Positions 1 to 62,464 of a DNA stretch of 64,000 nt are shown here, one piece after another. How positions within the stretch are numbered: the first letter of the stretch is position 1; each line of letters opens with the position of its first letter. The translations under genes and the position numbers were made by a program. Source of the DNA: an uncultured Methylococcaceae bacterium (lineage in GTDB: Bacteria; Pseudomonadota; Gammaproteobacteria; Methylococcales; Methylococcaceae); NCBI GenBank assembly GCA_903934875.1, contig CAIZPP010000101.1, positions 1-64,000 of the forward strand. The letters are read 5' to 3'. The notes beneath the pieces were generated by a model. The model was not told the origin of the DNA and ran no database searches. It was given only the letters and a program-made list of their open reading frames with translations.

Positions 1-18
1 TACGCCATCACGGGCGCA

Positions 19-116
19 CGGAGTGCGGCGACTCGTCGCCGCCTTTTGCGTCCAGCGGCGACGAGTCGCCGCACTCCACAAGTTGCCATCCTCTAGCGAT
101 GACTGCGTAACATCAG
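19..116. repeat. Partial copy of CTGATGTTACGCA-ended MITE
   Basis: About 98 bp are nearly identical, in inverted orientation, to 38066-38163. The copy contains a long hairpin (arms GGAGTGCGGCGACTCGTCG and its complement) and finishes with TGCGTAACATCAG, the terminal repeat of the family. The other end of the element would lie beyond the left edge of the window. Short reading frames across it are products of the palindrome and are not genes. Confidence 0.85.
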
Positions 117-2527: not shown

Positions 2528-4974
<2,447 letters not shown>

Positions 4975-38065: not shown

Positions 38066-38203
38066 CTGATGTTACGCAGTCATCGCTAGAGGATGGCAAC
38101 TTGTGGAGTGCGGCGACTCGTCGCCGCTGGACGCAAAAGGCGGCGACGAGTCGCCGCACTCCACAACATCCGGGCTACAGCCTACACGGTTGCGCAACAT
38201 CAG
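38066..38203. mobile_element. CTGATGTTACGCA-ended MITE, full copy
   Basis: The 138-bp element starts CTGATGTTACGCA and ends TGCGCAACATCAG. It contains a perfect long hairpin (38105-38163) built from GGAGTGCGGCGACTCGTCG-type arms. The flanks TTAATAA and TTAATAC are a nearly matching direct repeat of 7 bp. The remaining sequence of the gap 37973-38333 shows no gene and no other feature I can name. Confidence 0.8.
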
Positions 38204-52376: not shown

Positions 52377-53537
52377 ATGCTAGAAACATTACAGCAATTC
52401 AACCGCTTAGCTTCTATTGTACCCAGTCGCGAGACTGCGGCACCCTATATTGTTAAGGCAATACGTGCCAAGCATGGTTTTTTGGAGTTTTTTGCCGGTT
52501 CTGGCCTTGTAGCGGAAGGATTCAGTGGTAAGTTTACACCATTATGGGCAAATGATAATTGCGCGAAAAAAGCAGATGTCTATTCGGCAAATCATGGGAA
52601 ACGGCATTTTCAGCTTGGTTCCATTGAGAGTATTCAAGGTGAGTGCCTGCCTGTGGCACCTTTAGCGTGGGCTTCATTCCCTTGTCAAGACCTTTCCTTG
52701 GCGGGTTTGACCGATGGTATTCACGCTTCACGTAGCGGGTTGGTATGGGAGTGGCTTCGCGTTATTGATGAGATGCCTAGCCGCCCTAAGATTCTTGTGG
52801 CTGAGAATGTCACTGGTTTGGTTTCCCTCAATGGGGGGGCACATTATCGGATTCTGCACGAAGCTTTAGTCGAAAGAGGCTACCGTGTCGGTGCCATGCT
52901 TATCAATGCAGAACTGTGGATTCCCCAATCGCGCCCCCGCATATTCATTGTTGCGATTGTCGAAAAAGCTTGCTTGCCTTCATCATTAACTGGAACCGTG
53001 CCAAATTGGTTGCATACAAGTTCCATTATTCGAGCATGTGACAGCTTAAAGGACTGGATTTGGTGGAACTTACCACTTCCTCCGCAACGAAAAATAAGCC
53101 TTGAAGATATTGTTGAGTGGGATGCCATGCCCCAAGATGACGAAACTCAAAAACGGAACCTTGCGCTTATTTCACCAAGACACGCTAAACTACTCGAAAT
53201 GTTGCCGCATAATAAACCCTTTGCTGCTCCTGGTTACAAGCGGACTCGCAATGGTCACCAAGTGCTCGAGCTTCGTTTCGACCATATTGCTGGGTGCTTG
53301 AGAACACCTCAGGGTGGTAGCAGCCGGCAGCTTCTAGTTTTAATTAACAGCGGCCATCTCGTTTGCAGGCTACTAACAGTCAGAGAAGCTGCCAGACTGA
53401 TGGGGGCACCAGACAGCTATAAACTACCCGGCAGCTATAATGACGGTTATAAAGCAATGGGGGATGGAGTTGCAGTGCCCGTGACCCAATGGCTAGCCAA
53501 GCATCTTCTCTTACCCCTTGTAGAAGCCAATGATTAA
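52377..53537 (+). CDS. DNA (cytosine-5-)-methyltransferase
   Basis: A 386-residue C5-methyltransferase. The motifs are in the usual order: motif I FFAGSGLVAEGF, motif IV SFPCQDLSLAG with the catalytic Cys, motif VI VAENVTGL, motif VIII QSRPRIFIVAI, and motifs IX-X near the C-terminus (LTVREAARLMGAPDSYKL; GDGVAVPVTQWLAKHLL). The target-recognition region lies between motifs VIII and IX. Base composition is lower in GC than the cofactor genes on either side. It overlaps the following gene by 8 bp, typical of a restriction-modification pair. Confidence 0.93.
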   Translation: MLETLQQFNRLASIVPSRETAAPYIVKAIRAKHGFLEFFAGSGLVAEGFSGKFTPLWANDNCAKKADVYSANHGKRHFQLGSIESIQGECLPVAPLAWASFPCQDLSLAGLTDGIHASRSGLVWEWLRVIDEMPSRPKILVAENVTGLVSLNGGAHYRILHEALVERGYRVGAMLINAELWIPQSRPRIFIVAIVEKACLPSSLTGTVPNWLHTSSIIRACDSLKDWIWWNLPLPPQRKISLEDIVEWDAMPQDDETQKRNLALISPRHAKLLEMLPHNKPFAAPGYKRTRNGHQVLELRFDHIAGCLRTPQGGSSRQLLVLINSGHLVCRLLTVREAARLMGAPDSYKLPGSYNDGYKAMGDGVAVPVTQWLAKHLLLPLVEAND

Positions 53538-54069
53538 CGAGCATCTTTCCGTCAAGCTCTCAGCGTTTCGAGACAAAAATCAAATCGTCAATGTTGGCTG
53601 GTTGGGTACCGTGCTGGTTATCACTCGCAAAGCGCAAAAGATGGACTTTCCCCTAGACTCGGGAGACTTGATTACTGAAGGTGGTGGACAAGTTGCCGGG
53701 TTGAGCGGGCGAAGCATTAACAAGATTCTTACTGATTTCGTTATTGACGAGGCCATTATCCATTGCACTACTGCACCATCCGAGGCTCTATTGCTGAAAT
53801 GCAGGGCCAATCTGCAATCAGGGAAACGACCGATTATTCTTACGACAGGCAAAGGACTGGTCGCAGCCGAATCTATGGCTGAAAATTTTGGCATTGAGGG
53901 GCGAGTGGAAATCATGGACGCCTTGCAATTTCTAACCTGTAACCTTTACGAAATGAGTTTGTTCAAGGCAGACCAACGCAAGATCACCATCGACAAGCTG
54001 GTCGTAAAATACAACGATATTATCAACGCCCACGAATCGGATGCCAGCTTACGGATTGAAATTGGTTGA
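53530..54069 (+). CDS. DUF4928-like putative restriction partner
   Basis: A 179-residue protein. The segment TVLVITRKAQKMDFPLDSGDLITEGGGQVAGLSGRSINKIL resembles the DUF4928 core, a domain known from operons with C5-methyltransferases and thought to be the restriction component. The usual family length is larger, as I recall it, so this may be a short or truncated member. Nothing resembling a metal-binding nuclease motif is obvious. It overlaps the methyltransferase gene by 8 bp. A 13-bp inverted repeat begins at its stop. Confidence 0.65.
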   Translation: MINEHLSVKLSAFRDKNQIVNVGWLGTVLVITRKAQKMDFPLDSGDLITEGGGQVAGLSGRSINKILTDFVIDEAIIHCTTAPSEALLLKCRANLQSGKRPIILTTGKGLVAAESMAENFGIEGRVEIMDALQFLTCNLYEMSLFKADQRKITIDKLVVKYNDIINAHESDASLRIEIG

Positions 54070-54166
54070 GGGATAACATCCCCGATAAAACATCCGCTTA
54101 CCGTAGCTGTATCAAGAAACATGAACTCAGTGGCCTTAATGCCAATTGTAAAAGGATGTTATCCCT
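54069..54166. repeat. 13-bp perfect inverted repeat pair (AGGGATAACATCC)
   Basis: AGGGATAACATCC at 54069-54081 and its exact complement at 54154-54166 enclose 72 bp with no gene. The left arm begins at the stop of the DUF4928-like gene, and the right arm ends 4 bp before the kinase-like ATG. There is no direct repeat at the flanks. It could be a small element or the border of the inserted methyltransferase module. Confidence 0.65.
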
Positions 54167-54170
54167 AAGG

Positions 54171-54815
54171 ATGTGGGTGGTCAAGCTCGGCGGCAGTTTG
54201 GCGGATTCCCCCCATCTGCCGCACTGGCTGGAAGCGATAAGCCAAACCGATGCCGTCATCGTGCCCGGCGGGGGACCGTTTGCCGATGCGGTGCGGGAGG
54301 CACAACAACGCTGGCAGTTCGACGAACAGACGGCGCATCAAATGGCCATCTTGGCAATGTGGCAATACGGGCGGATGCTGGCCGGGCTTTGCCCCAAACT
54401 CGTTGCGGCAACTGCCTTGAAGGACTTGCGCCAGCATAAGGGCCGGGCAAAAGTCTGGTTGCCCAATCCCGAGGCGCTTGATGCTGCGGGTATACCAGCC
54501 AGTTGGGACATCACTTCTGACAGTCTCGCCGCTTGGCTGGCCGGACAAATCCAAGCCCAGCATTTGCTGCTCGTCAAGTCAGTGGCCGGATTGGACGAAC
54601 CGGCCGGTCAAGCGCGTGAAATATACGTCACACAGGCCGCAGCGGCGGGTTGGGTCGATCCAGCCTTTAGCCATTATGCCATGAACCAAAGTTTCCAAAG
54701 CTGGCTGTGCGGGCCAAGGGCATACGCCAAGCTACTCCGTGGATTGGACGTACCTGCTCATTTTTTCACCTTGTTAACTGATGTTACGCGCGTTGTTAGG
54801 CTAGATTCCCAATAG
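54171..54815 (+). CDS. Amino-acid-kinase-family protein, MfnE-like
   Basis: A 214-residue member of the amino acid kinase family. It starts MWVVKLGGSLADSPHL (phosphate-binding GGSL). PGGGPFADAVREAQQRWQFDE is the second glycine-rich motif, and LLVKSVAGLDEP belongs to the nucleotide site. Archaeal MfnE phosphorylates the furan phosphate intermediate of methanofuran synthesis. The neighbouring MfnD- and MfnF-like genes make a similar role likely. The final 13 codons and the stop lie in the left part of a MITE (from 54778), so the original C-terminus was replaced. Confidence 0.8.
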   Translation: MWVVKLGGSLADSPHLPHWLEAISQTDAVIVPGGGPFADAVREAQQRWQFDEQTAHQMAILAMWQYGRMLAGLCPKLVAATALKDLRQHKGRAKVWLPNPEALDAAGIPASWDITSDSLAAWLAGQIQAQHLLLVKSVAGLDEPAGQAREIYVTQAAAAGWVDPAFSHYAMNQSFQSWLCGPRAYAKLLRGLDVPAHFFTLLTDVTRVVRLDSQ

Positions 54816-55251
54816 GCGCAACCCGTAGGGGCAATGATGCACCGAATGCATCCTGCGTCCAAGCTACTTTGGTAGGGGATGGCGGGCTTAAGTGTACTGT
54901 GGGCCATGGGGATTCTTTGCTCTTAACGTTGCGTCTTAGCGCCGTTGCGTGAGGCAAAAAAATCTATGCCCATTGAGTGACATCCCGGATTGCGCGTAAA
55001 GCAAAAGAAGGCCTCACGCAACGGCGCAGCGACGCAACGTAAAGTGCAAGCAATGGGCGATACGGCAATGTCCAGGTTGAACGTGACGGACCTGAGCTGT
55101 TTTTCCGCCGCAAGCGCTCATTGAGGATAGCACCTTTCTGCGGCGGATAAGTAGGAGCGGCCTTCAGGCCGCGATGGGTGTCTGGTCGCGGGCTAAAGCT
55201 CTTGCCGAAAACGCCCGTAATCGGGCTTATTCCGGCGGTGCGTAACATCAG
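54778..55251. mobile_element. 474-bp element with CTGATGTTACGC ends
   Basis: The left end CTGATGTTACGC overlaps the end of the kinase-like gene, and the right end GCGTAACATCAG is at 55251. Inside are a long inverted pair (ACGTTGCGTCTTAGCGCCGT near 54926 and its near-complement near 55020) and a Pseudomonas-type REP palindrome (GTAGGAGCGGCCTTCAGGCC near 55151). It is larger than other copies and probably holds nested insertions. No gene is seen in it or in 55252-55360, which may contain the ispG promoter. Confidence 0.65.
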
Positions 55252-56578: not shown

Positions 56579-57405
56579 TTGTAGAATTCCACTACCACAT
56601 CCCTTGGCGTTCGCTAGGCCACCACCCCGGCCACCATCCGGGTACGCAATCGGGCGGGGGTTTCGAGTTTCGCGGGCTGCTGCCTTTCACCAGCCAGCCC
56701 GACCCGCGCCATCTGGACGTGCGGGCGATGATTGCCGACCCCACCCAAGCCTTGATGGTGAAGAGTTTCCGCCAACGCGCCGCGATCCCGGTTTATTTGC
56801 TGGCCGACCTGTCCGCGTCTATGGGTTTTGCCGGCAAGACGGCTTTGCTGGCGGAATTCGCCGCCGCAACGGCTTGGTCGGCTTGGCGTACCAGCGACCC
56901 GTTTGGTTTTTTTGCCTGTGACAGCCAAATCCGCTGGGACTTGAGTTTGCCCTTGCGTTTGCACAAAGGCATGGCGAGCGAACTGTCGGCACAAATACGA
57001 GCTTTTACGCCCAAGGCCAAAAATGCTTTAGGACTATTGGAAGCCGCCACCTTGTTGGGTCGGCAACGGGCCTTGGTGTTTATGGTTTCCGATTTTCATT
57101 TTCCTTTGGGCCAGATAGAAGCATTGTTTAACGCCTTGGTCCGCCATGACGTGGTGCCTGTGGTGTTGTGGGACAGTGGAGAATATGAGAACCTGCCGCG
57201 CTTTGGCTTGGTGGAATTGCAAGACCCCGAAACCGGCCAGCGCCGCCGCCTGTTCCTGAGGCCGAGTTTGCTGGCAAGGATCAGACAAGGCTTTGCCGAA
57301 CGGCGGGCGGAATTGACGCAGATTTGTATACGCTATGGACGCGAGCCGTTTTTTTTGCTTGATCGCTTTGACCCGGATGCGATGACACGGTATTTTTATT
57401 CATAA
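56575..57405 (+). CDS. mxaS: Methanol dehydrogenase assembly protein MxaS
   Basis: A 276-residue DUF58/VWA-like protein. The conserved N-terminus includes [19 protein letters not shown], and DPRHLDVR is the DUF58 region. [12 protein letters not shown] resembles a MIDAS D-x-S-x-S motif. MxaS is one of the accessory proteins of methanol dehydrogenase maturation, thought to help in calcium incorporation. The start is TTG (overlapping the ispG stop); no better start exists. mxaA, mxaC, mxaK and mxaL follow. No mxaFJGI or mxaR is in the window. Confidence 0.85.
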
Positions 57406-57430
57406 ACTGACTTGGTTAGGAAGAAAAAAA

Positions 57431-57512
57431 TGACACCCATTCAAACCCTTCTGTGTGTGCCTTGCAAAATGATATAACCTGACAAGCAACCTGCGATATT
57501 AAAAACGCTGTA
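57431..57512. repeat. Truncated TACAGCG-family element between mxaS and mxaA
   Basis: Matches the right two thirds of 60844-60965 (shared CTTGCAAAATGATATA and ATATTAAAAACGCTGTA). The right end GCTGTA overlaps the mxaA ATG by one base, so the element forms the whole leader. The left end is missing. Confidence 0.75.
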
Positions 57513-58429
57513 TGAAGAGGTATCCACTGAGTTTGGCAATGCTAAGTTTTGCCTTGGCCTTGCCGGTTTTGGCCGCACCACTTTCGCTTATCCATGCGCT
57601 TGAAGTCTCATCGCCCCGCGACTACGGCATCGTGATGGGGGAAACTTTGCTAGGCGAGATACGGGTGAGGACAGCGGCGGGCCTGGAACTGGAAACGGCA
57701 AGCCTTCCCCAGCCGGGAAGCGCGGTCAATGATTACTTGGAGGTGCGGGCAATCCAGAGTGACCGGCAAACACTGGGCGAGGAAACCCTTTATCGCATCA
57801 CCTTGACCTATCAGGTGTTCAAAGGCGTGCGTGAGGCGGAAACACTCGCCGTCCCTGCCCTCCCACTGCGTTTCCATCACTATGGCGAGATAGTGGAAAC
57901 GACAGCCCCCTCCTGGAATTTCACCCTCACGCCTATCATCCCGGCCAAAACGGCGGACGAGGCGGTGGTTTTGCGCGCCAGCCTGCCTGCGCCCGATAAT
58001 TCCAGCGCCAGCCACTGGCGCTGGCTTTTGGCATTTCTGGCCGGACTGGCCGGACTTGGGATTTACTCGGCTTGGAGACTTGGCCTAGCGCCCTTCCGCC
58101 GCCACATCCCGCCGTTTGCGCGGGCGGCATCTGAGTTGAAAATACTGGTGCGGCAAGCGGGGACACTGGCAAATTACCGGCAGGGCGCGAAACTACTGCA
58201 CGATGCCCTCAATGAAACCGCAGGCCATACCCTGTTCTACGGCCAGTTGCCTCATTGGCTGGAAACCCGTCCCGAATACGCAGGCTCCAAGGCAGAGTTG
58301 GAACAGTTTTTCAGCGTTTCTGAGCGAATATTCTTTATGGCGGACACCGAGTATCCCGCTGACTATCCGTTATCCCGCGTGGAAAACCTATGCCGGAAAC
58401 TCGCATCGGCTTACAGCGTTTTTTCTTAA
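57512..58429 (+). CDS. mxaA: Methanol dehydrogenase assembly protein MxaA
   Basis: A 305-residue protein with a signal peptide (about residues 1-22), a periplasmic domain, one membrane span (about residues 168-190, LLAFLAGLAGLGIYSAW) and a cytoplasmic C-terminal part. It is assigned to MxaA by size, topology and position between mxaS and mxaC. MxaA is required for calcium insertion into methanol dehydrogenase. The start codon lies inside the element end (GCTGT-ATG) without a Shine-Dalgarno sequence. The last codons (SVFS, stop) fall in the next copy of the element. Confidence 0.82.
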   Translation: MKRYPLSLAMLSFALALPVLAAPLSLIHALEVSSPRDYGIVMGETLLGEIRVRTAAGLELETASLPQPGSAVNDYLEVRAIQSDRQTLGEETLYRITLTYQVFKGVREAETLAVPALPLRFHHYGEIVETTAPSWNFTLTPIIPAKTADEAVVLRASLPAPDNSSASHWRWLLAFLAGLAGLGIYSAWRLGLAPFRRHIPPFARAASELKILVRQAGTLANYRQGAKLLHDALNETAGHTLFYGQLPHWLETRPEYAGSKAELEQFFSVSERIFFMADTEYPADYPLSRVENLCRKLASAYSVFS

Positions 58430-58675
58430 CAAACTGTCGTTACGCACAAGGCCCCTGTGCGGTTATTGGCAAAGGATTGCCGACTTGCGGTGATTCGCTT
58501 TGGAGTGTCAAGGCCGGCCTGCCTTGACAGGCAAAGCGAGCTTTGCCACTCCATGCGTAACATCAGTTAACAAAGAATAATAATAAAGGACACTCAATCA
58601 AACCATCCTGTGTATGAACCACTTTGCAAAATGATATAACCCAACAAGTAACTCTTTGATGTTGAAAACGCTGTA
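58412..58675. repeat. TACAGCG-family element carrying a nested MITE
   Basis: Without the nested insertion this copy is 123 bp long and matches 60844-60965. It begins inside the end of mxaA and ends CGCTGTA two bases before the mxaC ATG. The nested MITE occupies 58434-58566. Confidence 0.85.
58434..58566. mobile_element. Nested CTGATGTTACGCA-type MITE with 8-bp target duplication
   Basis: The 133-bp insert begins CTGTCGTTACGCA and ends TGCGTAACATCAG. TTAACAAA occurs on both sides (58426-58433 and 58567-58574) but only once in the uninterrupted copy at 60844-60965. The inserted body has a GGAGTGTCAAGG/CCACTCC hairpin. This is direct evidence of transposition of the family. Confidence 0.9.
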
Positions 58676-58677
58676 AG

Positions 58678-59652
58678 ATGAGTCTGGCTTTTGCGCAACC
58701 TTGGGCCTTGTTGCTTGGCCTGTTGGCGGTCATCCCCCTGTTCAAAAGGGGGCAGCCTACGCTGGCCTATTCCAGTCTGGCACGGCTACCTGAGGACCCT
58801 TTGTCATTATGGATAGACTGGAGCTTGCGGGTTTTGGCAAGTTTGGGCTTGCTGTTGTTGGCCTTGGGCATCGCAGAGCCTTATTTACGCGAACAATGGG
58901 TAGAGAAGATAGGCACCGGGGCGCATATCGTACTGGTGGTGGACCGCAGCAGCAGTATGAACGAAAACTTCTCCGGCACTTATCTAGGCGGGACGGCCCA
59001 TGAAACCAAAAGCGTCCTGGCCGCAAAGTTGCTGGCTGAATTTGTGGACCGGCGCGGGCAAGACTTCTTTGCCGTCGTCGCCTTCAGTGCCGCGCCGATT
59101 TATGTGCTGCCCCTGACCCAAGACCATGAGGCCGTCCGCTCCGCCGTGCTGGCTTTGGGCGGACGCGGGCATGGCATCACCAATATCGCGCCGGGCTTGG
59201 CTATGGCCTTGGCGCATTTCAGCGCTCAGCCGGTCACCGGTTCGCGGATTGTTTTGTTGGTGTCCGACGGCGCGGCTAGAATGGAGCCTGAAACTGCCGA
59301 CGCCCTGCGCCAACAATTCCAAGACCATCAAGCTTCGCTGTATTGGATTTATCTGCGCAACCCGAAAGGGGGAAAACTTGCCGAAGCACCCAAAAACCCC
59401 AATGAAAGCACCACCCCGGAATATTATTTGCACCAGTATTTCCAGTCGCTAGGCGTTCCCTATCAAGCATTTGAAGCCGACAACACCCTCGCTTTACAGG
59501 AGGCCATCACCAAAGTGGAAACATTGGAAAACCATCCCTTGAAATACCGGCAGAAGTTGCCGCGACAGGATATGTCGGGAATTTGTTATGGGGCAGCCCT
59601 CGTGTGTTTGCTAGCTTTGCTTGCTGGTCAAATACTGGAAGTCAATACATGA
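58678..59652 (+). CDS. mxaC: Methanol dehydrogenase assembly protein MxaC
   Basis: A 324-residue membrane protein with two N-terminal spans (about residues 8-22 and 46-64), a VWA domain and a C-terminal span (YGAALVCLLALLAGQIL). The MIDAS metal site begins at LVVDRSSSMNENFS (D-x-S-x-S). The VWA topology is like that of BatA/BatB proteins, used here for methanol dehydrogenase maturation. The leader CGCTGTAAG-ATG is identical in form to that of aroB, and there is no clear Shine-Dalgarno sequence. Confidence 0.85.
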   Translation: MSLAFAQPWALLLGLLAVIPLFKRGQPTLAYSSLARLPEDPLSLWIDWSLRVLASLGLLLLALGIAEPYLREQWVEKIGTGAHIVLVVDRSSSMNENFSGTYLGGTAHETKSVLAAKLLAEFVDRRGQDFFAVVAFSAAPIYVLPLTQDHEAVRSAVLALGGRGHGITNIAPGLAMALAHFSAQPVTGSRIVLLVSDGAARMEPETADALRQQFQDHQASLYWIYLRNPKGGKLAEAPKNPNESTTPEYYLHQYFQSLGVPYQAFEADNTLALQEAITKVETLENHPLKYRQKLPRQDMSGICYGAALVCLLALLAGQILEVNT

Positions 59653-59654
59653 GA

Positions 59655-59776
59655 TGCAGCGTTTTGATGTTTAAAAACTAACTAAAAATGAATAGTAAAA
59701 AAATATCTGATTTAAAAAGATATCCTGCACCACCATACACCTTATCAAGCAACCATTTGATGCTGAAAACGCTGTA
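59655..59776. repeat. TACAGCG-family element between mxaC and mxaK
   Basis: The 122-bp copy starts TGCAGCGTTTTGATG just after the mxaC stop and ends GCTGAAAACGCTGTA inside mxaK. It matches the right third of the aroK-aroB composite (7731-7855). The mxaK ATG at 59760 is within its right terminal repeat. Confidence 0.75.
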
Positions 59777-60293
59777 TGTACTCAGCCTGTTGGCTTTAGG
59801 GGGGGTGGTATACCACGGATTCAAGCTTTACCAACTGGAAACGCTGAAGCGCACTATGGCTAACCCAGACCGGGTGACCGTGGATGAAAATACCCCGGAT
59901 ATTCTGGTCTTTGCCAAAGCCATGCGCTACGAGCAAACCGGCAACACAGGCGAAGCCATCAGGCTTTATGCCAGTCTGCGCAATGCCCAAGACCCCGACC
60001 TGCGCGCACGGGCTTTCCACAACCTAGGCACGATTTATCTGCGCGACGGCGCGGTACACTGGAATGCGCATGGCGTTTTGGATTATGCCCATGTCAGTAG
60101 CCAAATCGAGTTGGCCAAGGAAAACTACCGCGAAGCGCTGCGCCTAAACCCAGACGACTGGGATGCCCGCTTCAACTTGGAATACGCGTGGCGCATTACC
60201 CCTCCGCCTAAGGAAAAACCAAAATCCGACTTTCAAGGCTCCAAGTCCAGCGTCTATTCAACGCTGCCGGGCTTGCCGGGAGGCGGTCCGTGA
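59760..60293 (+). CDS. mxaK: Methanol dehydrogenase assembly protein MxaK
   Basis: A 177-residue protein. One N-terminal span (MLKTLYVLSLLALGGVVYHG) is followed by TPR-like helices (ARAFHNLGTIYLRDGAVHW; ENYREALRLNPDDWDARFNLEYAW) and a Pro-rich tail. Gene order between mxaC and mxaL supports the name. I start at 59760 (MLKTLYVL), where the signal anchor begins. The longer frame from 59688 is the translated repeat. The first codons are within the element end, so the repeat contributes to the N-terminus. Confidence 0.8.
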   Translation: MLKTLYVLSLLALGGVVYHGFKLYQLETLKRTMANPDRVTVDENTPDILVFAKAMRYEQTGNTGEAIRLYASLRNAQDPDLRARAFHNLGTIYLRDGAVHWNAHGVLDYAHVSSQIELAKENYREALRLNPDDWDARFNLEYAWRITPPPKEKPKSDFQGSKSSVYSTLPGLPGGGP

Positions 60294-60297
60294 ACGG

Positions 60298-60965
60298 TAC
60301 AGCATTTTCAACATCAAAGAGTTACTTGATAACTGGCATGAAAAGGCAAGATATTTAGTTAACTCGAAACGTTATCTGAATATCCTTTATTAGGTATATT
60401 GTAAAGATGAAAATGCTGTACATGTAGAAATTCCCATGCTTCACATACCATTTTCATGAATGTATGCCAACTAAGCATTTACTCCAGTATCACTCTAAAA
60501 ACAGCTTATTGATAGGATGGGCAAAGACCGCTAGGCCGTGACCATCTTGGGCGGTTTGATGGGCACGGCCTAGCGGCCTTTGCCCATCCTACACTTTGTC
60601 CAATTTTGTAGTGATTAGGGAGTAAACGCATATCATAATTACATCATTCCCACGCTCCGAGTGGGAATGCCTCCACGGTGACTCTGCGTCCGACTGTTTG
60701 TTTGAGGGGAAAGGAATGGTCACTGGAGATAAACTCAACGTAGAGCGTTGAAGGCAGTATTCCCAGGGTGATAAAAAAACATCTTGCTAATCTGGATGGC
60801 CTGTGTGTTAATACATCGCAAGGAGTCCCGGTTTGCATTTATGTACAGCGTTTTTTCTTAACAAAGAATAATAATAAAGGACACTCAATCAAACCATCCT
60901 GTGTATGAAATACTTGCAAAATGATATATCCCAACAAGTAACTATTAGATATTAAAAACGCTGTA
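60298..60965. repeat. Large composite element between mxaK and mxaL
   Basis: This 668-bp gene-free block begins TACAGCATTTTCAACATC and ends ATTAAAAACGCTGTA. Its left part matches 7399-7530 and 61821-61960, and its right part (60844-60965) is the uninterrupted 122-bp copy. Compared with the aroK-aroB composite, its middle contains an extra insertion (60481-60623) and a REP-like hairpin (ATTCCCACGC and complement, from about 60646). Confidence 0.8.
60481..60623. mobile_element. Nested hairpin element inside the mxaK-mxaL composite
   Basis: The outer inverted ends ACTCCAGTATCACT and AGTGATTAGGGAGT match at 11 of 14 positions. A 27-of-28 inverted pair (TAGGATGGGCAAAG-type arms, 60513-60591) lies inside. 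The sequence on both sides (CATTT and AACGCATATCATAATT) is continuous at 7583-7602, so this is an insertion relative to that copy. Confidence 0.75.
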
Positions 60966-60967
60966 AC

Positions 60968-61852
60968 ATGAACCTCGCTGTTAATCTGAGTTGGCGCTTC
61001 TGGTCACTGCTCAGTGCCGTAATACTGCTGGCCATCTGCCTAACCCACCCTACCCTGCCGTTGAAACGTCCGGTGTTTCGCTACCTGTTCGTCATCGACA
61101 TCACCCAAAGCATGAACGCCAGTGACTACCACCAAGCCGGATTGCCCGCAGACCGGTTGGGTTTCGTCAAGGCATCCATCCGGCAAGCCTTGGACAAACT
61201 GCCTTGCGGCTCGGAAGTAGGGCTGGGTTTATTCACCACCCGCAATAGCCAAGTGCTGTTTGAACCCATAGAGGTCTGCGGGCACTTCCCGCTCATCGCC
61301 GACGTGCTGGACCACATAGACTGGCGCATGGCTTGGGCCGCAGACAGCCACATTGCCCGTGGCGTCTATACCGCGCTGCGCGAGACGGCTGCACGAGGCG
61401 GTGACACACGCCTAGTCTTTTTCAGCGACGGCCAGCAATTCCCTCCGGAACCTGATTTTCCACCTTTCGACGGAAAACCCGGGGCAATAAGCGGCCTACT
61501 CGTCGGCGTCGGTGGCTCCTTGCCCGTCCCGATCCCTCGTTTGGACAAAGAAAACCGCCCGTTGGGGTTTTGGGAGTATGTGGATTTGCGCGACTATTTA
61601 CCGCTTTCGGCCATGCCGAAAGACGGTTCTAGCCTCTATCTTTCCCGACTTGACGAGCAAGCCTTAACGCGTCTATCTGCGACCACGGGTTTAGGCTACC
61701 TTCGCCTGGAAACCCCGGAGAGCCTCACCCGCGCACTGCTGGCCCGAAACCTGACGACGGAACGTATTGTTGCCGTTGATATTCGTTGGATGTTGGCTTC
61801 ACTAGCGTTATTATTGCTTTTACAGCGTTTTCAACCTCAAAGAGTTACTTGA
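60968..61852 (+). CDS. mxaL: Methanol dehydrogenase assembly protein MxaL
   Basis: A 294-residue VWA protein. There is one N-terminal span, then the metal site in FVIDITQSMNASDY (D-x-T-x-S), and a C-terminal span (WMLASLALLLLL). It is thought to act with MxaC, MxaK and MxaA in calcium loading of methanol dehydrogenase. The final residues QRFQPQRVT and the stop TGA are encoded by the left end of the next element. The leader CGCTGTAAC-ATG lacks a Shine-Dalgarno sequence. Confidence 0.83.
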   Translation: MNLAVNLSWRFWSLLSAVILLAICLTHPTLPLKRPVFRYLFVIDITQSMNASDYHQAGLPADRLGFVKASIRQALDKLPCGSEVGLGLFTTRNSQVLFEPIEVCGHFPLIADVLDHIDWRMAWAADSHIARGVYTALRETAARGGDTRLVFFSDGQQFPPEPDFPPFDGKPGAISGLLVGVGGSLPVPIPRLDKENRPLGFWEYVDLRDYLPLSAMPKDGSSLYLSRLDEQALTRLSATTGLGYLRLETPESLTRALLARNLTTERIVAVDIRWMLASLALLLLLQRFQPQRVT

Positions 61853-62389
61853 TAGTGGGTATGTAAGCGCAGGTTATTCGGTTAATCTGAAGAGTTAATG
61901 GAATGCCTTTTTTAGGTATATTTTTAAGATGAAAACGCTGTACATAAAGATATTCCCATGCGTCTTATACCATTTCCATAAATGTACCTGGTTAGGAAGT
62001 TTCTTCAGCTATTCCGATTTAGGCATGGACCGCCTGACAAATTCGTCTGGAACGAATTTGGACGCGCGTAGCGCGGGGCCTAGCCCGAACCGCATGGACG
62101 CGGTGAGCCATCCAGATAGCAGGGATGCCCAAAGTGCCGCCGTACATGGAGCCTAGGTTCCGGCGGTTCATGCCGGAACGACGGCGTTCTGGGTTTTTCT
62201 GAAACATCTTCCTAATCTGGTTGGCCTATGTGTTAATACATCGCAAGGAGTCCCGGTTTGTATTTATGTACAGCATTTTTATCTTACAAAGGATAATAAT
62301 AAAGGACGCTCAATTAGACCATCTTGTGTGTATGTGCCTAGCAAAATGATATAACCTAAAAGTAACTCTTTGATGTTAAAAATGCTGTA
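61821..62389. repeat. Large composite element downstream of mxaL
   Basis: The 569-bp block begins TACAGCGTTTTCAACCTC inside the end of mxaL and ends TTAAAAATGCTGTA. It is built like the composites at 7399 and 60298: a left copy, a spacer with its own palindromes (TTCCGGCGG and ATGCCGGAA near 62157-62176), and an inverted right copy. The flanking dinucleotide TA is present at both ends. No gene is seen in it. Confidence 0.8.
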
Positions 62390-62464
62390 TTCTGACCAAT
62401 ATTCCCGGTACAATCATATCGGCTGATATTACACACCGAACCGTCAATAACGTAAGGATAAACT

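What the first reader, a model, noticed from the sequence alone, without database searches (positions are those of the whole stretch)
58412..58675. Filled and empty sites of a MITE in one window
The copy at 60844-60965 shows the empty site, and 58412-58675 shows the same element with a 133-bp insertion flanked by TTAACAAA twice. This defines the ends (CTGATGTTACGCA type) and the 8-bp target duplication of the second family.
Basis: seen in the sequence. Interest (0 to 1): 0.65.

Follow-up and report, generated by a model that had tools for sequence, protein, structure and literature searches.

The report
Nested MITE and its parent transposon
The 133-base insert is a real miniature transposon that jumped into another small repeat; the full-size transposon with the same ends exists in a sister species and in distant bacteria, and its miniature copies share only 13-base ends around unrelated, mostly hairpin-forming fillings.

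Summary
Window 58434-58566 is a 133-bp element flanked by TTAACAAA twice, inside a family-1 repeat (58412-58675); the paralogous copy at 60844-60965 has the site once. Five of five sister orthologs of this gene junction carry neither element. The 8 bp is target, not element: it varies between copies and is 7 bp (33) or 8 bp (16), consensus TTA-N(1-2)-TAA.

The genome has 604 ends (CTGATGTTACGCA, at most one mismatch; reversed control 1). The parent was found: a 1134-bp insertion sequence with these ends and a 351-aa transposase (NCBIfam 'IS701 family'), whole in Ca. Methylumidiphilus alinenensis, in pieces here. Relatives in Ca. Parabeggiatoa, Thioploca and a Chloroflexota MAG have 12-13 of 13 matching end bases and 7-bp TTANTRA duplications.

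Unexpected: the miniature elements share only the 13-bp ends. Interiors are unrelated but mostly palindromic, REP-like and different in each host; miniature pairs occur in five of twelve genomes holding the IS. A MITE system of known kind with a modular, hairpin-filled design; why palindromes recur is untested.

The parts
58412..58675 (+). family-1 repeat (TACAGCGTTTT...AAAACGCTGTA) interrupted by the insert
58426..58433 (.). target duplication copy 1, TTAACAAA; holds the TAA stop (58427-58429) of the upstream ORF
58434..58566 (.). 133-bp miniature element, interior type A (32 of 92 sampled elements)
58434..58446 (+). left terminal inverted repeat, variant CTGTCGTTACGCA
58554..58566 (-). right terminal inverted repeat CTGATGTTACGCA
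58567..58574 (.). target duplication copy 2, TTAACAAA
60844..60965 (+). uninterrupted paralogous family-1 repeat; single TTAACAAA at 60858-60865
57512..58429 (+). upstream ORF whose last residues and stop codon come from the family-1 repeat
58678..59652 (+). downstream von Willebrand factor A domain gene; in sister genomes it overlaps the end of the upstream gene
38066..38203 (.). 138-bp element of interior type B, same ends; duplication TTAATAA/TTAATAC (one mismatch)
54778..55251 (.). 474-bp stretch between two matching ends (CTGATGTTACGCG / CTGATGTTACGCA); no duplication found
1..116 (.). element of type B interior cut by the window start; its right end is 104-116
2539..2551 (-). solitary end CTGATGTTACGCA with no partner found

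Best explanation
The insert is a non-autonomous miniature transposon moved in trans by a DDE transposase of the IS4/IS701 superfamily. Shown: the same 13-bp ends bound a 1134-bp IS with a 351-aa transposase in a sister species, and the same or nearly the same ends bound intact IS copies with 7-bp duplications in distant bacteria; miniature copies with 7-8-bp duplications of TTA-N(1-2)-TAA are numerous in the window's genome; this copy interrupted a family-1 repeat that had itself entered between two overlapping genes. Inferred: the transposase recognises little more than the 13-bp ends, cuts the target with a 7-8-bp stagger, and tolerates almost any filling, so that short DNA bounded by two ends moves. 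The transposase was not shown to be intact or active in this genome: its two halves lie at the ends of two contigs.
For: Filled and unfilled copies; sister loci without either element, 5 of 5 orthologs, 5 of 6 sister genomes having one. Ends 302+302 versus 0+1 control; 94 exact pairs in this genome. In a 1.43-Mb sample (81 pieces, not random) 50 of 83 pairs with both flanks have exact duplications of 6-8 bp, against 1.5 on average and at most 8 in 1000 shuffles. Parent IS: L087/L111 bases 1-1134, ends 13/13; halves in G000 at C157 (IS 1-763) and C42 (769-1134), truncated copy in C185 (1-436). NCBIfam IS701_2 351.5 bits, cut-off 250. Intact IS with duplications TTAATAA, TTATTGA, TTATTAA, TTACTAA in L202, L203, L206, L209.
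Against: No complete IS copy is seen in this genome's assembly; flanks of the two halves do not form a matching duplication. The full copy in the sister starts at a contig end, so its duplication cannot be read. 33 of 83 flanked pairs lack an exact duplication, from decay, recombination or mis-assembly. Beyond base 13 the miniature elements here hardly match the IS, so descent from it by simple internal deletion is not shown.
Confidence: 0.92

Rival explanations
1. The 133-bp unit is a REP doublet (REPIN/BIME) moved by a RAYT (Y1) transposase, and the flanking repeats are incidental.
For: The interiors hold inverted palindromes, some of which also occur outside such elements (D 11, E 4, G 35 places), and the genome has three Y1_Tnp matches.
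Against: Target duplications and 13-bp inverted ends are typical of a DDE element (general knowledge); the ends are shared by an IS with a DDE transposase; types A and C interiors outside paired elements are few and the printed ones mostly look like decayed elements.
Confidence: 0.04
2. The 264-bp form is ancestral and the 122-bp form arose by deletion between the two TTAACAAA words.
For: Deletion between short direct repeats would give the same pair of structures.
Against: Dozens of elements with the same ends lie in unrelated sites, each with its own duplicated word; sister loci lack the whole region.
Confidence: 0.02
3. A sub-question, compatible with the best explanation: the elements are relics of a transposase now lost from this genome, and nothing moves today.
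For: No complete transposase in the assembly.
Against: The two halves end 5 bp apart in IS coordinates, as a contig break would give; 138-bp copies are near identical in the printed lists.
Confidence: 0.3

Closest known systems
IS701 family (NCBIfam NF049921; ISTth8 as listed in PMC6352166)
   Same: Transposase scores 351.5 bits over a cut-off of 250.
   Different: Duplication 7-8 bp and length 1134 bp here, against 4 bp and 1400-1550 bp in that paper's table (passages read).
IS4 family (Tn5/IS10 type)
   Same: Y-2-R-3-E-6-K spacing at Y272, R275, E279, K286 (my reading; motif recalled); the only PDB relative found is Tn5 transposase, E 0.006.
   Different: IS4 NCBIfam models stay below their cut-offs, best 94 of 250 bits.
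REPINs / BIMEs with RAYT transposases (PMC3116915, PMC2817692, search listing only)
   Same: Interiors are pairs of inverted palindromic repeats.
   Different: These are bounded by IS-type inverted ends and target duplications.
TIMEs, Tn3-derived miniature elements (PMC4133298, search listing only)
   Same: Miniature elements that keep transposon ends and yield mosaics.
   Different: Other transposase family; here only 13 bp are kept and fillings are host palindromes.

Membership tests
MITE | short, non-coding, inverted ends, target duplication | tested here: met
   133 bp; no transposase in it; ends and TTAACAAA duplication; 50 of 83 sampled pairs with exact duplication
MITE | ends shared with an autonomous element | tested here: met
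   13/13 with the 1134-bp IS of the sister genome
IS701 family | transposase sequence family | tested here: met
   NF049921 351.5 bits, cut-off 250
IS701 family | 4-bp target duplication (per PMC6352166) | tested here: not met
   7 or 8 bp
IS701 family | length 1400-1550 bp (per PMC6352166) | tested here: not met
   1134 bp; relatives 1113-1270 bp
IS4 family | YREK signature | tested here: met
   read by eye from the translation; motif recalled
IS4 family | NCBIfam IS4 model over its cut-off | tested here: not met
   best 94.0 of 250 bits
REPIN/RAYT | mobility without target duplication by a Y1 transposase | tested here: not met
   duplications present; Y1 matches exist in the genome but no link was tested
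active transposition | movement in cells | not testable with these tools
   sequence only

The most novel reading that the evidence does not exclude
One IS lineage, spread across several orders and at least two phyla, repeatedly gives rise to miniature elements that keep only its 13-bp ends and are refilled with each host's own palindromic repeats. The hairpin filling would be functional: a cruciform or foldback brings the two ends together and favours synapsis, so palindromic fillings are the ones that amplify. In Parabeggiatoa-type hosts both MITE ends resemble the left IS end, which would fit birth by inverted duplication of one end.
Probability: 0.35. Interest if true: 0.68.

Novelty: new variant of a known kind. 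Interest (0 to 1): 0.5.

Why it matters
It links a large burst of small repeats (302 ends in each orientation in 5.4 Mb) to a definite transposase, and suggests that 13 bp may be all an IS needs to move unrelated DNA. If the palindromic filling matters for movement, it offers a simple test of why bacterial MITEs and REP-like repeats are so often hairpins. It also warns that contig breaks in such genomes fall in these elements.

Tried and rejected
PF01609 family search for the transposase in the genome found two genes without these ends; the parent was found instead by reading past unpaired ends. Site preference for family-1 repeats: 30 of 212 ends with 45 bp of flank lie in family-1-like sequence, 15 of them at exact TTAACAAA/TTTGTTAA, but 39 of 433 target-like words in the sample also do, so the excess is small, and the two ends of one element are not independent. 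Terminator role: no terminator-like site in 58350-58750, one weak promoter-like match (0.4 expected). Link to the TAACTGA heptamer repeats of Beggiatoaceae (PMC4679880, passages read): 216 TAACTGA in the sample, 102 of them TAACTGATG (as at element junctions), but no tandem TAACTGATAACTGA, so not pursued. Origin by plain internal deletion of the IS: among 30 end classes two match the IS for five or more further bases; one is the IS's own right end (GTGAGCCGTTGA, from C42) and one, CGGACACTGAAT, a possible relic; shuffles average 0.09. Literature: searches listed no paper that, by title and abstract start, describes these elements; 'miniature inverted-repeat' with 'Methylococcales' 0 papers, five-term MITE query 0 papers. 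PMC4853749 (Thiomargarita MITEs) was read in passages only. This is not proof that nothing is in print.

Full report
What is there. Window 58434-58566 is a 133-bp block with inverted ends CTGTCGTTACGCA and TGCGTAACATCAG, flanked by TTAACAAA at 58426-58433 and 58567-58574. Family-1 repeats are common: 50 matches of 100 bp or more in 1.43 Mb (whose later part crashed).

History of this site. In sister genomes the downstream von Willebrand-domain gene follows its upstream neighbour without a gap: five orthologs (L189-L193) show overlapping stop and start (my reading); G027 has only a distant match. So both repeats most simply entered this junction in the lineage of the window's genome. The upstream ORF now ends at TAA 58427-58429, a codon supplied by family 1 and lying in the duplicated word; the second insertion left it intact.

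The family. At one mismatch or fewer the genome has 302 forward and 302 reverse ends, reversed control 0 and 1, and 94 exact pairs 111-141 bp long. In the sampled 1.43 Mb, 222 such ends gave 92 pairs; 33 have an exact 7-bp, 16 an exact 8-bp and one a 6-bp duplication, 42 none, some for lack of flank. Of 83 pairs with both flanks, 50 have a duplication; shuffled flanks give 1.5 on average, 8 at most. The words read TTA-N-TAA or TTA-NN-TAA. So the 8 bp here is one of two lengths. Among the genomes of the same taxonomic family only genus members have exact pairs: 5 of 38 genomes, all of one genus.

The parent. An end on contig C42 runs into a transposase C-terminus whose stop codon lies in the end itself. 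The sister G025, which the scan names Candidatus Methylumidiphilus alinenensis AMbin10 (the same place appears under G025 and G048), holds it whole: 1134 bp, ends 13/13, 351 aa. In the window's genome bases 1-763 and 769-1134 lie at the ends of two contigs and a third copy is truncated at 436; the flanks of the two halves do not match, so I cannot say they are one copy. NCBIfam calls the protein IS701 family (351.5 bits, cut-off 250); Pfam gives DDE_Tnp_1 and DDE_5. A scan of genome contigs found 21 loci. Four intact copies outside the genus have exact 7-bp duplications: two Ca. Parabeggiatoa (TTAATAA, TTATTGA), a Chloroflexota MAG (TTATTAA; one end GTGATGTTACGCA) and Thioploca (TTACTAA; ends CTGAAGTTACGCA). 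The other 17 loci are partial, cut by contig ends, or gave no exact duplication in that test.

The unexpected part. Pairs in this genome fall into 16 interior clusters at 68% identity, the largest of 37 and 32 members. Among 33 classes of ends, bases 1-13 are nearly invariant and from base 14 to 30 no base exceeds 17 of 33. The interiors are not alike, but nearly all fold: 26 of 29 class representatives or elements from other genomes have z below -2 (median -5.9), against 12 of 60 random segments of this genome (median -0.5) (several of the 29 share the same hairpin, so they are not independent, and L064, L220 and L224 do not pass). RNA energies were used only as a measure of palindromes. The fold of the window copy is modest, z -3.4 and -4.7 on the two strands, while the 38066-38203 element reaches -11.0. 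Some hairpins occur outside the elements too.

Elsewhere. Of twelve genomes holding relatives of the IS, five have exact miniature pairs: 56 in Parabeggiatoa sp. HSG14, 13 in a Thiotrichaceae MAG, 9 in M. alinenensis, 2 in Latescibacteria, 1 in Thioploca; seven have none. Their fillings differ from those here, except one M. alinenensis pair of type A, and often repeat a palindrome; in HSG14 the palindrome GGAGTGCAAAATTTATTTTGC has 126+132 matches, and 27 of the 30 fetched lie within about 190 bp of an inward end, 3 do not. In seven elements of HSG14 and the Thiotrichaceae MAG, 12 of 14 ends match the Parabeggiatoa IS left end better than its right end over bases 14-31 (related elements, not independent).

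How it works. Shown: ends, duplications, parent, insertion history. Inferred: trans-mobilisation by the IS transposase. Speculative: that the hairpin helps the ends meet. The alternative, that palindromes are simply the most abundant short DNA available and tolerated between ends, is not excluded.

Known or new. A MITE with an IS parent is an ordinary thing. The IS departs from the IS701 description seen in PMC6352166 (4-bp duplication, 1400-1550 bp). The modular, hairpin-filled design carried by one IS lineage in several hosts was not met in my searches, which cover only an open-access library.

Noticed in passing
window 57400-62390: About seven family-1 repeats (near 57386-57513, 58412-58675, 59657-59776, 60298-60423, 60844-60965, 61821-61942, 62269-62389, from the repeat table) fill the gaps of one operon of DUF58, VWA and TPR genes; the ends look like TA-flanked inverted repeats.
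   Followed up: partly
window 54066-54815: The last residues and stop of an amino-acid-kinase ORF are encoded by the left end of the 474-bp stretch at 54778-55251.
   Followed up: no
window 52377-54069: C-5 cytosine methylase next to a DUF4928 protein, possibly a restriction-modification pair (pairing is my inference).
   Followed up: no
L132 18896-19193: A 298-bp pair looks like a mosaic: left part type B, a REP-like middle, right part type A; both outer flanks lie in family-1 repeats.
   Followed up: partly
G000 contig ends (e.g. C44, C53, C123, C148, C159): Many contigs begin or end inside these elements, so the assembly is broken at them.
   Followed up: no
Beggiatoaceae (PMC4679880): The junction of target and element reads TAA|CTGA, the same letters as the TAACTGA heptamer described in Beggiatoaceae, relatives of which also carry this IS; no tandem heptamers were seen in the sample or in six relative loci.
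   Followed up: partly
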